Assembly: GCA_948468535.1 (NCBI GenBank)
Contig: CAOKIL010000008.1
Location: forward strand, 1-36,143
Length of the DNA stretch: 36,143 nucleotides
Direction: 5' to 3'
Source: an uncultured Eubacteriales bacterium
Lineage (GTDB): Bacteria; Bacillota; Clostridia; Monoglobales; Monoglobaceae
Made by a program: the position numbers and the translations under genes. The notes beneath the pieces were generated by a model. It was not told the origin of the DNA and did no database searches. It was given only the letters and a program-made list of their open reading frames with translations. The stretch's first letter is position 1. Every line of letters begins with the position of its first letter. Below are positions 3,254-18,005 of this stretch, piece by piece.

Positions 3254-3456
3254 AATATACCCCGCGATAGCCGTAAGGTGGTTAAGGTAAAAACCTGGAA
3301 ACCAGGTGGGATTCGCTCAAAGGCTTTACAAGTCCACTGGACACCAAAAAGGTGTGAGGCATGTGCGCCACCTAATTGAAGAAAGAATCCCTTATAAAAT
3401 TTGTTGGTTTTACATTAATGCCACAAATACGTACAACGCAGGGATATATTCAATTT
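3254..3456 (-). ncRNA. ssrS: 6S RNA
   Basis: A rod-shaped RNA of about 200 nt on the minus strand. The ends pair: minus-strand ATATAtCCCtGCG (around 3449-3437) with CGCgGGGtATAT (3266-3255). Further in, the 3415-3424 side (GCCAC, TTAAT) pairs with ACC/TTAA/CCAC around 3278-3295, and GGGATTC (3391-3385) pairs with GAATCCC (3314-3308), leaving a central bubble with a small ACCTGG-AAA-CCAGGT-type hairpin (3293-3307). The apical part has an ACACC-TTTTT-GGTGT hairpin. This layout (closing stem, central bubble mimicking an open promoter, terminal stem-loop) and conserved strings such as TTTGAGCGA and CTATCGCGGGG match clostridial 6S RNA. 6S RNA binds the housekeeping RNA polymerase holoenzyme and modulates transcription in stationary phase. 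The assignment comes from structure and remembered consensus, not a covariance search. Confidence 0.78.
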
Positions 3457-14016: not shown

Positions 14017-14124
14017 AAAGTCGAATTCAGCAAAGGTTTTGGCGACATTACCGCCGCGGTAGGCAAGGCGGAATCAGGGGACGGCGTTTGATTCAAAGGC
14101 AAAGCCTTTGCTGAATTCGACTTT
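14017..14124. repeat. Palindromic MITE-like element with 20-bp perfect inverted termini
   Basis: A 108-bp element between hemW and the xre gene. AAAGTCGAATTCAGCAAAGG at 14017-14036 is repeated exactly in inverse at 14105-14124. The interior (14037-14104) is GC-rich, with CCGCCGCGG and GGACGGCG. No transposase or credible protein is encoded. It resembles small non-autonomous palindromic repeats of clostridial genomes; a target-site duplication is not evident. A further hairpin follows at 14139. The rest of the gap (14160-14400) holds two exact copies of CAACTTATCA (14341-14350, 14364-14373) and otherwise nothing. Confidence 0.75.
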
Positions 14125-14527: not shown

Positions 14528-14761
14528 ATGCAAAATTCACAAGTGGCAGATAAAATTAGAGAACTCTGCAAAAAAGCAGGTATTACCGTCAAGGAACTGT
14601 TGGAACAATGCAGAATTAATCGTAACTTTATATATGATCTTGAAAAGAGAGGTCAAGCACCCTCGGCTGATAAACTTGAAAGAATTGCCGATTATCTTGA
14701 CTGCTCGGTTGACTATCTTTTGGGGCGCACCGATATTGTTGAAGTAAATAAATCAAAATAA
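14528..14761 (+). CDS. Small XRE-family DNA-binding regulator
   Basis: A 77-residue protein that is almost entirely a helix-turn-helix domain of the XRE/Cro type: 'VADKIRELCKKAGITVKELLEQCRINRNFIYDLEKRGQAPSADKL...' with the recognition helix around residues 28-40, ending in the common 'IADYLDCSVDYLLGRTD' tail. It is phage- or mobile-element-like. It probably represses its own promoter, which carries a palindromic site between -35 and -10. The ribosome binding site is AGAAAGG. It is followed by the decayed BrnT/BrnA module, and together with the palindromic repeat this stretch looks like an accessory insertion between hemW and spoVT. Targets beyond its own promoter are unknown. Confidence 0.85.
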   Translation: MQNSQVADKIRELCKKAGITVKELLEQCRINRNFIYDLEKRGQAPSADKLERIADYLDCSVDYLLGRTDIVEVNKSK

Positions 14762-14829: not shown

Positions 14830-15019
14830 ATGGATATAATAAAATTTGAATGGGACGAAAATAAACATCAGATTAACAAGAAAAAACATAAAATATCCCT
14901 TGAGGAAGCTAAAACAGTATTTTACGACGAGAAAGCACTCATAATTAGTGATAAGGATTATATCTGCCAGAAAAGCAACCAGGTCAGAAACAAAACAATA
15001 CTATGAATGGGGTGAATAA
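14830..15019 (+). pseudogene. brnT: BrnT-type toxin gene with an internal deletion and frameshift
   Basis: From ATG 14830 the sequence reads 'MDIIKFEWDENKHQINKKK...ISLEEAKTVFYDEKALIISD', the N-terminal half of a BrnT ribonuclease toxin. At about 14957 the frame shifts by +1 and continues 'IISARKATRSETKQYYEWGE' to a TAA at 15017-15019, the BrnT C-terminus. The middle of the family (usually about 35-40 residues, with the 'ERFI...' strand and core beta-strands) is missing. In the original frame a 58-residue product would end at 15004-15006. The product is therefore almost certainly inactive. A TTGACA at 14806-14811 or a TATAAT at 14796-14801 could be part of its promoter. BrnT is the toxin of a type II pair; its antitoxin gene follows 1 bp after the relic's end. 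Confidence 0.8.
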
Positions 15020-15020
15020 T

Positions 15021-15230
15021 ATGAAAAATGAATATGATTTCTCAAATGCAGTAAAGAATCCTTATATAAAAAAGCTGAAAAAGCAAATAACGATAAAAAT
15101 TGATGGTGACACTATAGATTACTTCAAGGGACAGTCAGAAGTTTCGGGAATTCCATATCAAACCCTCATAAATCTATATTTAACTGATTGTGCAGTAAAT
15201 AAAAAACAGCTTCATGTTTCATGGAATTAA
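15021..15230 (+). CDS. brnA: BrnA-type antitoxin
   Basis: A 69-residue antitoxin of the BrnA/CopG-like ribbon-helix-helix group: 'MKNEYDFSNAVKNPYIKKLKKQITIKIDGDTIDYFKGQSE' followed by 'SGIPYQTLINLYLTDCAV'. The start is placed at 15021, preceded by GGGGTGA at 15009-15015; an earlier ATG at 15003 would add six residues derived from the overlapping toxin frame. BrnA binds and neutralises BrnT and, as a dimer, represses the operon. Here the partner toxin is broken, so this is an orphan antitoxin that may survive as a DNA-binding regulator or as protection against related toxins. Confidence 0.85.
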   Translation: MKNEYDFSNAVKNPYIKKLKKQITIKIDGDTIDYFKGQSEVSGIPYQTLINLYLTDCAVNKKQLHVSWN

Positions 15231-16033: not shown

Positions 16034-16780
16034 ATGAATTCCATAAAGCTCAAAACCGTATCAGTCATAATCTCAGCCGCTGTAATTACCGGCTGTCTCA
16101 CAGGCTGCGGCGGAATTTCACAGTCGGATTTTAAACGGCTTGAAGAAAGAGTTGAGCAGCTCGAAAGTAAAATCGGCAGCTCAGCAAACAGTTCTAAAAA
16201 TTCGCCGGCTGAAACACCGTCAAAAAGTTCAAATGCCTCAAATGAAGATTTTGATGAAAACAAGGTCTATGACGAAATCAAAGTTACACAACATGACTTT
16301 GTCGATAATGACGATAACAAATATTCGATTTTTGTTTTTAACAATACCTCCGACTTCAATGTTGACGCAATGATAAAAATCACAACCAATGATGAGGACG
16401 GCGAAATCCTGCAGGAAGAAGAAAAAACTATAAAAGGTTTGCCAAAGGGTAAAGAATCGTATGCGTCTTTTGCTCTTGATGAGGATACCGAGACCATCGT
16501 CCGCACAGTTACATATGAAGAAAATACTGAAAAAGAGAACCCGTTAGACAACCTATCGGCACGCGCTGCAAAAGCTGAAGGCGGAGCAAATGTAACTATA
16601 CGAAACAACGGTACAAGTGCGGTTAAAAATTTGAAGTACATGACTCTGTTCTTTAAGGGCAAAGAACTCGTAGGCTTTGACAACGGCAATGTTCCAAATA
16701 TCTCAGCAAGTTCGAGCGAAGTTATTCCGTCTGAATATTATGGCAGCTTTGACAAAGCAGAGGTCTACATTACCCGATAA
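16034..16780 (+). CDS. Putative lipoprotein of unknown function
   Basis: A 248-residue exported protein. The signal peptide has two overlapping lipobox candidates, 'VITGC' (Cys21) and 'CLTGC' (Cys25), so it should be anchored to the outer face of the membrane. A short coiled coil follows (about 33-46, 'FKRLEERVEQLESKIG'), then a serine-rich linker (47-68) and two beta-rich domains with acidic surfaces ('NTSDFNVDAMIKITTND' and 'GGANVTIRNNGTSAVKNLKYMTLFF'). The second half resembles surface proteins with paired immunoglobulin-like or FxLYD-like domains. I do not recognise a specific family. GGAGGT lies at 16021-16026. Its promoter is strong and there is no terminator before the structured RNA, so the two may be one transcript. 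Confidence 0.7.
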   Translation: MNSIKLKTVSVIISAAVITGCLTGCGGISQSDFKRLEERVEQLESKIGSSANSSKNSPAETPSKSSNASNEDFDENKVYDEIKVTQHDFVDNDDNKYSIFVFNNTSDFNVDAMIKITTNDEDGEILQEEEKTIKGLPKGKESYASFALDEDTETIVRTVTYEENTEKENPLDNLSARAAKAEGGANVTIRNNGTSAVKNLKYMTLFFKGKELVGFDNGNVPNISASSSEVIPSEYYGSFDKAEVYITR

Positions 16781-16791
16781 AAATTTATGAT

Positions 16792-16955
16792 AATTTGGGA
16801 ACTTTTCGGAGGCTACAGCGTCTAACAAAACAAGGAGAGGAAATCTGACCTATCCTTGTGAGAACATATGATTGAGAGACGAAAGTGCGTATTCGTTTCT
16901 GCAACCGATGTTCTTATCCAACACCCCTTTAATTTACCTCCCTTTGTTCCTAATT
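16792..16955 (+). ncRNA. Structured multi-branched RNA of unassigned class
   Basis: A 164-base stretch with nested pairings typical of a structured RNA. Closing stem: AATT and GGAAC (16792-16802) pair with GTTCC and AATT (16946-16955), and GGAGG (16808-16812) pairs with CCTCC (16937-16941). Inside are two hairpins: ACAAGGA (16830-16836) with TCCTTGT (16853-16859), extended by AGG/CCT, and AGAACAT (16861-16867) with ATGTTCT (16908-16914), whose interior pairs GAGACGAA with TTCGTTTC. The result is a three-way-junction layout. An 11-bp terminator follows 15 bases later, and then the start of the radical SAM gene. It is not a T-box (no specifier or antiterminator box), TPP, SAM, glycine, cobalamin or lysine riboswitch by motif. 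It could be a riboswitch-like leader or an independent small RNA (the clostridial raiA RNA class is one candidate), but I cannot name it. Confidence 0.6.
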
Positions 16956-16970
16956 TTAGGGCAAAACTCA

Positions 16971-17006
16971 AACCGTCTGTGACAAAGAAACACAGACGGT
17001 TTTCTA
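16971..17006 (+). terminator. Intrinsic terminator upstream of the radical SAM gene
   Basis: AACCGTCTGTG (16971-16981) and CACAGACGGTT (16991-17001) form an 11-bp perfect stem with a 9-base loop and end in TTTTC. Only 25 bp separate it from the ATG of the next gene. No promoter fits in that space, so the gene must depend on read-through, a hallmark of attenuation. Confidence 0.85.
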
Positions 17007-17030
17007 TATTTAACAGAAAGGTCTGATAAA

Positions 17031-18005
17031 ATGCGAAAGTATAACATACCTATTTTCATACCGCATGAGGGCTGTCCGCACGACTGCCTCTTCTGCAATC
17101 AAAGAAAAATCACCGGTATTGACAGCTCTGTTACTCCAAATGATGCCAAATGCCGAATTGCCGAATATCTTTCGACTGTGAAAAGTTATGAATGCGAAAT
17201 TGAAATCGCATATTTCGGCGGCAGTTTTACCGGTCTTGACATAGGTCTTCAGCGCGAATTTTTAAAAGCTGCCGCAAGTTTTGATGACCCTCGGATAACA
17301 GGTATCAGAATGTCAACCAGACCTGACTATATAGACACTGAGATTTTAGACATGTGTGCCGAATACAACGTGACCGCAATTGAACTCGGTGTACAGACCA
17401 CAAGCGACAATGTGCTTGAACTCAACAAACGCGGTCATTGCTTTGACGATGTAAAAACTGCCTCCAAGCTGATCAAGGATTATAATATTAGCCTGGGACT
17501 TCAGATGATGCTCGGAATGTACGGTTCTGACCCCGAAACAGACCTCAAAACATGTGATGACATAATATCGTTGTCACCGTCATGCACAAGAATATATCCG
17601 ACTATCGTGCTCAGCGGAACCGAACTCGAAACACTGTACAACTCAGGCAAATACACACCGTATACAATTGAAGCCGCTGCCGGTATTGCAGCCGAATGCC
17701 TTGAACGATTCAGAGAAAATAACATTGACGTTATCCGAATCGGCTTATACTCAAGCGACGACCTTCGATCAGACGGAAATATTATTGCCGGACCGTTTCA
17801 CCCTGCATTCGGCGAAATAGCCGAAAATATGGTCTACCGCCGCAAAATTGAGAAAACAATTATAGCCCAAGGTATCAAAGACTGCGAACTGAAGATACCG
17901 GCTAAACCGAGCGAAGTCTCAAAAATCATCGGTCAAAAGCGTTGCAATAAGATTTATTTTAAACAAAAATACGGTGTTGATATTAAAATTGTACAGATGA
18001 GCTGA
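17031..18005 (+). CDS. Elp3-like radical SAM protein
   Basis: A 324-residue radical SAM enzyme. The cluster motif is C-X3-C-X2-C at Cys15, Cys19 and Cys22 ('GCPHDCLFCNQRKITG'), followed by 'AYFGGSFTGLD' and 'GIRMSTRPDYID' and the 'AIELGVQTTSDNVL' strand. This matches the Elp3/COG1243 branch, but the GNAT acetyltransferase domain of true Elp3 is absent. A HisB-like or methylthiotransferase role is not indicated, since no TRAM domain or second cluster motif is visible. In many clostridia this gene sits near rnc and smc; here it is by itself behind a structured leader and a terminator. Its stop codon (18003-18005) directly touches the stop codon of gpr on the other strand. The reaction is unknown; tRNA modification is plausible from the family. 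Confidence 0.8.
   Translation: MRKYNIPIFIPHEGCPHDCLFCNQRKITGIDSSVTPNDAKCRIAEYLSTVKSYECEIEIAYFGGSFTGLDIGLQREFLKAAASFDDPRITGIRMSTRPDYIDTEILDMCAEYNVTAIELGVQTTSDNVLELNKRGHCFDDVKTASKLIKDYNISLGLQMMLGMYGSDPETDLKTCDDIISLSPSCTRIYPTIVLSGTELETLYNSGKYTPYTIEAAAGIAAECLERFRENNIDVIRIGLYSSDDLRSDGNIIAGPFHPAFGEIAENMVYRRKIEKTIIAQGIKDCELKIPAKPSEVSKIIGQKRCNKIYFKQKYGVDIKIVQMS

What the first reader, a model, noticed from the sequence alone, without database searches (positions are those of the whole stretch)
16792..17030. Unassigned three-way-junction RNA plus terminator directly in front of a radical SAM gene
The sequence shows a closing stem (16792-16812 with 16937-16955), two internal hairpins (16830-16859 and 16861-16914) and an 11-bp terminator (16971-17001) 25 bp before the ATG of an Elp3-like radical SAM gene. 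No promoter fits between terminator and gene, so transcription of that gene must pass the terminator. That is the architecture of a riboswitch or attenuator. Known riboswitch motifs I can recall are absent. The alternative is a stand-alone abundant small RNA, such as the raiA RNA class of clostridia, with leaky termination.
Basis: partly seen in the sequence, partly recalled or inferred. Interest (0 to 1): 0.72.

Follow-up and report, generated by a model that had tools for sequence, protein, structure and literature searches.

The report
Envelope-stress sigma factor small RNA gene
In front of a radical SAM gene of a Monoglobus gut bacterium lies a separate small-RNA gene, not a riboswitch of that gene, and it is probably switched on by a cell-envelope stress sigma factor, much like the stress small RNAs of E. 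coli and Fusobacterium.

Summary
The two hairpins and the terminator are real. The reading as a leader of the radical SAM gene is not. In 11 other genomes of the genus (Monoglobus) the radical SAM gene has no such leader. Full-length RNA homologs occur in the two other deepest lineages, directly downstream of a lipoprotein gene, and in both the next gene is convergent, so there is nothing in cis to regulate. The block read as the 5' closing strand (GGGAACTT...CGTC) is a promoter: GGGAACTT-N14-CGTC is kept in all three RNAs with exact spacing. It also lies at the ECF sigma / anti-sigma junction in all 12 genomes and in front of exported-protein genes (30 hits against 4 for the reversed pattern). 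The transcript would start near 16828-16831 and contain P2, a long hairpin P3 kept by compensatory changes with an invariant apical GAA-AGUGCGYA-UUC, and a terminator. No Rfam family matches. Best explanation: a new ECF-sigma-dependent small RNA in the 3' flank of a lipoprotein gene, acting in trans, with the radical SAM gene in this species read by leaky termination. Its targets are unknown; the one plausible pairing (anti-sigma start codon) was not significant. No transcript has been shown.

The parts
16034..16780 (+). Lipoprotein gene (248 aa, signal sequence with lipobox-like LTGC) whose 3' flank holds the RNA gene; no terminator seen between its stop and the RNA
   Evidence: Translation; orthologs in all 12 genus genomes, no Pfam family
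16797..16804 (+). -35 element GGGAACTT of the predicted ECF-sigma promoter
   Evidence: Exact GGGAACTT-N14-CGTC in all three RNA loci and at sigma/anti-sigma junctions and exported-protein genes of the genus, 30 hits vs 4 reversed control; 1 in 20000 shuffles of each intergenic region has GGAACTT-N14-CGTC
16819..16822 (+). -10 element CGTC of the predicted ECF-sigma promoter (followed by TAA in most promoters of the set)
   Evidence: Same as the -35 element
16828..17005 (+). Predicted small RNA, about 175 nt; start inferred 6-9 nt after CGTC, end at the terminator
   Evidence: Inferred from promoter and terminator; homologs in two relatives found with a covariance model and by synteny. No transcript data
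16830..16859 (+). Hairpin P2, loop and 3' side with conserved UCUGACC
   Evidence: Folds; UCUGACC identical in three homologs
16860..16915 (+). Long hairpin P3; stem sequence changes between genomes, pairing kept
   Evidence: z about -5 in each genome; 4 pairs with changes on both sides on a sequence-only alignment, 0-1 with slid partners
16881..16894 (+). Conserved apex of P3: GAA-AGUGCGUA-UUC (AGUGCGCA in one homolog)
16970..17002 (+). Terminator hairpin, 12 bp, 9-nt loop, weak U tract
   Evidence: Sequence and fold, -17.0 kcal/mol
17031..18005 (+). Elp3-like radical SAM gene downstream; a neighbour of the RNA only in this genome
   Evidence: PF04055 and PF16199; orthologs elsewhere lack the RNA

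Best explanation
16797-17005 is a stand-alone small-RNA gene in the 3' flank of a lipoprotein gene. It is transcribed by the ECF sigma factor of the genus from a GGGAACTT-N14-CGTC promoter when the zinc-finger anti-sigma factor releases that sigma (as in SigW/RsiW and RpoE/RseA systems), and it ends at the intrinsic terminator. The RNA is two hairpins: P2, carrying UCUGACC, and a long P3 that presents the loop AGUGCGYA. It most likely acts in trans by base pairing, as the noncoding arm of the envelope-stress response. In this species the radical SAM gene has come to lie behind the RNA and is read by leakage through the weak terminator. Shown by sequence: promoter motif with its sigma/anti-sigma partners, synteny with the lipoprotein gene, P3 pair conservation, absence of the leader in relatives. 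Inferred: transcription, sigma dependence, trans action, readthrough.
For: Full-length homologs in two relatives, both after the lipoprotein ortholog, with a convergent gene behind them. Promoter motif with exact spacing at all three loci while the spacer has diverged; 1 of 20000 shuffles each. The same motif at the end of an ECF sigma gene (PF04542 + PF08281) in front of a zf-HC2 anti-sigma-like gene with a hydrophobic segment, in all 12 genomes, and before exported-protein genes. All three RNAs fold at z about -5; compensatory changes in P3. The three carriers are the deepest lineages of a 12-genome tree, so the conserved blocks have survived long divergence. No Rfam family in window or homologs.
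Against: No transcript or TSS data. Only three homologs; none in the other nine genus genomes or the rest of the order, and none outside the genus in a pattern scan of about 85,000 species. No target found: pairing to the anti-sigma start was not better than shuffles (0.09-0.45 for P2), and sites complementary to the P3 loop fall at no shared gene. G002 has only a weak terminator candidate. At the sigma/anti-sigma junction the motif also encodes conserved residues (RELF...FV), so those hits are not independent promoters. A sigma-70-type -10 (TATGAT 16786-16791) lies next to it, so housekeeping transcription is not excluded.
Confidence: 0.68

Rival explanations
1. The element is a cis-acting riboswitch or attenuator of the radical SAM gene: ligand or translation controls whether the terminator at 16970-17002 forms.
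For: Structured RNA plus terminator 28 bp before the ATG, no promoter between them.
Against: Orthologs of the gene lack the leader; two RNA homologs have no co-directional gene behind them; no obvious anti-terminator pairing; no Rfam riboswitch.
Confidence: 0.05
2. The element is mainly the structured 3' UTR of the lipoprotein mRNA, a stability or termination element or a processed 3'-UTR fragment, with no ECF-driven primary transcript.
For: Always directly after the lipoprotein gene, with no terminator between.
Against: Conserved promoter motif shared with the sigma/anti-sigma operon and exported-protein genes; orthologs in the other genomes manage with a plain terminator hairpin; sequence conservation of an apical loop is not needed for stability.
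Confidence: 0.15
3. The conserved promoter drives a small protein rather than a functional RNA.
For: An ORF of about 51 codons can be read from the ATG near 16868 to about 17026.
Against: The frame is not kept: reading from the same place gives unrelated lengths and sequences in the homologs, and paired changes sit in the stem. No well-placed Shine-Dalgarno sequence.
Confidence: 0.05

Closest known systems
FoxJ and FoxI of Fusobacterium nucleatum (PMC11005410)
   Same: ECF-sigma-dependent sRNAs in bacteria far from Enterobacteria; FoxJ is about 156 nt, had been misannotated as the 5' UTR of ylmH, and ends at a terminator in front of that gene, the same architecture as here.
   Different: No synteny (der/ylmH there). 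FoxJ uses a C-stretch seed; the C-rich stretch here (CACCCC/CCUCCC) is missing in one homolog and the conserved part is the P3 loop. No expression or target data here.
MicA, RybB and MicL of Escherichia coli (RpoE regulon; PMC8103513)
   Same: An envelope-stress ECF sigma with a GGAAC-type -35 drives sRNAs that form its noncoding arm (sRNA arm; promoter type and MicL's position in the 3' part of the cutC transcript: own knowledge).
   Different: No sequence or Rfam relation. Hfq dependence, seed and targets untested. A Clostridia genus instead of a Gram-negative.
raiA RNA (RF03072)
   Different: No match in the window or in 12 genus genomes.

Membership tests
ECF-sigma-dependent small RNA (MicA/RybB/MicL, FoxI/FoxJ kind) | ECF-type promoter shared with the sigma's own regulon | tested here: met
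   GGGAACTT-N14-CGTC at the RNA and in the sigma/anti-sigma operon and exported-protein genes, 30 vs 4 control hits
ECF-sigma-dependent small RNA (MicA/RybB/MicL, FoxI/FoxJ kind) | Discrete short RNA ending at an intrinsic terminator | tested here: inconclusive
   Terminator hairpins in G000 and G001, weak in G002; no RNA data
ECF-sigma-dependent small RNA (MicA/RybB/MicL, FoxI/FoxJ kind) | Expression depends on the sigma factor | not testable with these tools
   Needs RNA-seq or Northern blot with sigma overexpression or deletion
ECF-sigma-dependent small RNA (MicA/RybB/MicL, FoxI/FoxJ kind) | Base pairs with envelope or regulon mRNAs | tested here: inconclusive
   Anti-sigma start pairing not significant; no shared site for the P3 loop
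Riboswitch or attenuator of the radical SAM gene | Conserved leader of orthologous target genes | tested here: not met
   No such leader in orthologs; homologs have convergent neighbours
Riboswitch or attenuator of the radical SAM gene | Match to a known riboswitch model | tested here: not met
   Rfam 15, gathering and E-value mode
raiA RNA (RF03072) | Match to the covariance model | tested here: not met
   (no control genome rang)
6S RNA (RF00013) | Match to the covariance model | tested here: not met
   The 6S gene of this genome is at 3255-3447 minus; this element has no 6S match

The most novel reading that the evidence does not exclude
A noncoding arm of an ECF envelope-stress response in Clostridia, whose RNA works through a deeply conserved hairpin apex. 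The loop AGUGCGYA holds a self-complementary UGCGYA that keeps its self-pairing through the U/C change, so it could form kissing dimers or be a protein site, rather than act through a linear antisense seed.
Probability: 0.15. Interest if true: 0.72.

Novelty: new member of a known kind. Interest (0 to 1): 0.5.

Why it matters
ECF-sigma-dependent sRNAs are well known in Enterobacteria and were recently found in Fusobacterium. I found no such report for Clostridia in the library searched, and the C. difficile promoter map states that consensus sequences for its ECF sigmas were not yet identified (PMC7438776). Here comparative genomics gives an ECF promoter consensus, a small regulon and an RNA member for a gut genus, one of whose genomes (G002) is complete. 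Whether the noncoding arm of envelope stress also exists in Gram-positive-type bacteria thus becomes directly testable. It also shows how an sRNA gene with a terminator can be mistaken for a riboswitch leader.

Tried and rejected
Rfam in gathering and E-value mode on the window and homologs: only chance matches. DNA similarity search in genus and family: no homolog at nucleotide level; a structure model was needed. Model R2 hits outside the three loci match the promoter part only where I looked, so I do not count G207 or others as RNA homologs. Scan of genome contigs with the lipoprotein found nothing; with the RNA pattern it found one homolog and nine unrelated matches that look coding. One-mismatch promoter scan is at noise level. 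Pairing of the P2 loop (AAAUCUGAC) with the anti-sigma start (AUGUCRGAUUU) looked attractive by eye but was not significant. Sites complementary to the P3 loop: no shared gene.

Full report
Observation. The segment holds two stable hairpins (16830-16859, 16860-16915) and a terminator hairpin (16970-17002); the fold is far more stable than shuffles (z -4.85; z -5.6 for the two hairpins). Nothing in Rfam matches it. The radical SAM gene 17031-18005 is Elp3-like (PF04055, PF16199). No promoter fits in the 28 bp between terminator and ATG.

It is not a leader of the radical SAM gene. All 12 genomes of the genus hold that gene. In the orthologs read in the sense orientation it follows directly on an RNase III-like coding sequence (named from its sequence, not tested), with no room for a leader (loci of minus-strand matches were printed unturned there). 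A single-sequence covariance model (R1) found one full-length homolog in a relative, G002 (E 2.9e-4; alignment). It lies right behind the ortholog of the upstream lipoprotein gene 16034-16780. That lipoprotein is present in all 12 genomes. Its downstream regions show the RNA in a third genome, G001, and a plain terminator-like hairpin in the others. In G002 and G001 the next gene is convergent. The RNA therefore travels with the lipoprotein gene and has no cis target in two of three cases. In the window genome the radical SAM gene behind it is a lineage-specific neighbour.

Taxonomy. The G001 contig is identical over the stretch compared to DXIJ01000121.1, Candidatus Monoglobus merdigallinarum, so the genus is Monoglobus (Clostridia, Monoglobales). 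In a tree of radical SAM plus lipoprotein, the RNA carriers G000, G001 and G002 are the three deepest lineages; the nine without it form a clade with 100% support. The simplest history is an ancestral RNA lost once.

The 5' block is a promoter. GGGAACTT-N14-CGTC is identical in the three loci although the spacer has diverged. Over the genus this exact pattern gives 30 hits against 4 for the reversed control. By my reading, 12 are at the 3' end of an ECF sigma gene in front of the next gene, one is a tandem copy there, 13 are in front of exported-protein genes, 3 are the RNAs and 1 is chance. The sigma gene carries Sigma70_r2 and Sigma70_r4_2; the gene behind it has a zf-HC2 zinc finger and a hydrophobic stretch, as anti-sigma factors do. 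At the sigma/anti-sigma junction the motif also encodes the last residues of sigma (RELF..FV), so those hits alone would not prove a promoter; the intergenic ones do not have this problem. GGAACTT-N14-CGTC appears in 1 of 20000 shuffles of each RNA-bearing intergenic region, and the motif occurs once in the window. It is strong in this genome only and not significant in the homologs.

The RNA. From the promoter the start is inferred at about 16828-16831, giving about 175 nt. Conserved parts are UCUGACC in P2 and the apex of P3, GAA-AGUGCGYA-UUC. On a sequence-only alignment P3 shows 4 pairs changed on both sides and 91% paired cells, against 0-1 such pairs and 35-50% with slid partners (three sequences, so this is modest evidence). 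A better model (R2) over 51 genomes of the order gives only the three loci with the full RNA; weaker hits that I examined match the promoter part. A pattern scan of about 85,000 species adds no homolog outside the genus.

Mechanism. The parts match ECF-dependent sRNAs: an envelope-stress type sigma, its anti-sigma, exported-protein genes and an sRNA under one promoter type. FoxJ of Fusobacterium is a close architectural parallel: a sigma-E-dependent RNA of about 156 nt that had been annotated as a 5' UTR (PMC11005410). For RpoE, MicA, RybB and MicL form the noncoding arm (PMC8103513). The targets here are open. The P2 loop can pair with the anti-sigma start (10 pairs in G000) but no better than shuffles, and sites complementary to the P3 loop lie at no shared gene. 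Transcription, sigma dependence and trans action are inferences.

Verdict. A known kind of object, a stress-sigma sRNA, in an unexpected lineage, with a clear promoter, a small regulon and testable predictions. The riboswitch reading is rejected.

Noticed in passing
window 3255-3447 (-): 6S RNA gene (RF00013, 66 bits), so the element studied here is not the genome's 6S RNA.
   Followed up: partly
window 14830-15230 (+): BrnT/BrnA toxin-antitoxin pair in which the BrnT toxin is cut short: only the first half of the Pfam profile is matched (58 aa), while the BrnA antitoxin is matched over most of its profile. An XRE-type regulator lies just upstream (14528-14761).
   Followed up: partly
window 14017-14124: Two 25-nt arms in inverted orientation, 96% complementary and 58 nt apart, right behind the HemW-like gene: a terminator or a MITE-like element; no further copy in the window or at other places among the fetched loci.
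   Followed up: partly
L057, L058, L060, L073-L076, L082, L083: The nine genus genomes without the RNA all carry the ECF promoter in front of an exported protein MKKLKL..GSIYSTDILAYVNNRPIPSY; the exact promoter was not found before such a gene in the three RNA-bearing genomes. RNA and this regulon member are thus complementary in distribution.
   Followed up: no
L078 1500-1525, L062 1500-1525 and orthologs: The promoter of the anti-sigma gene overlaps the last codons of the ECF sigma gene, so the sigma's C-terminal residues (RELF..FV) and a promoter of its own type are encoded by the same bases; G001 has a second tandem copy outside the gene.
   Followed up: partly
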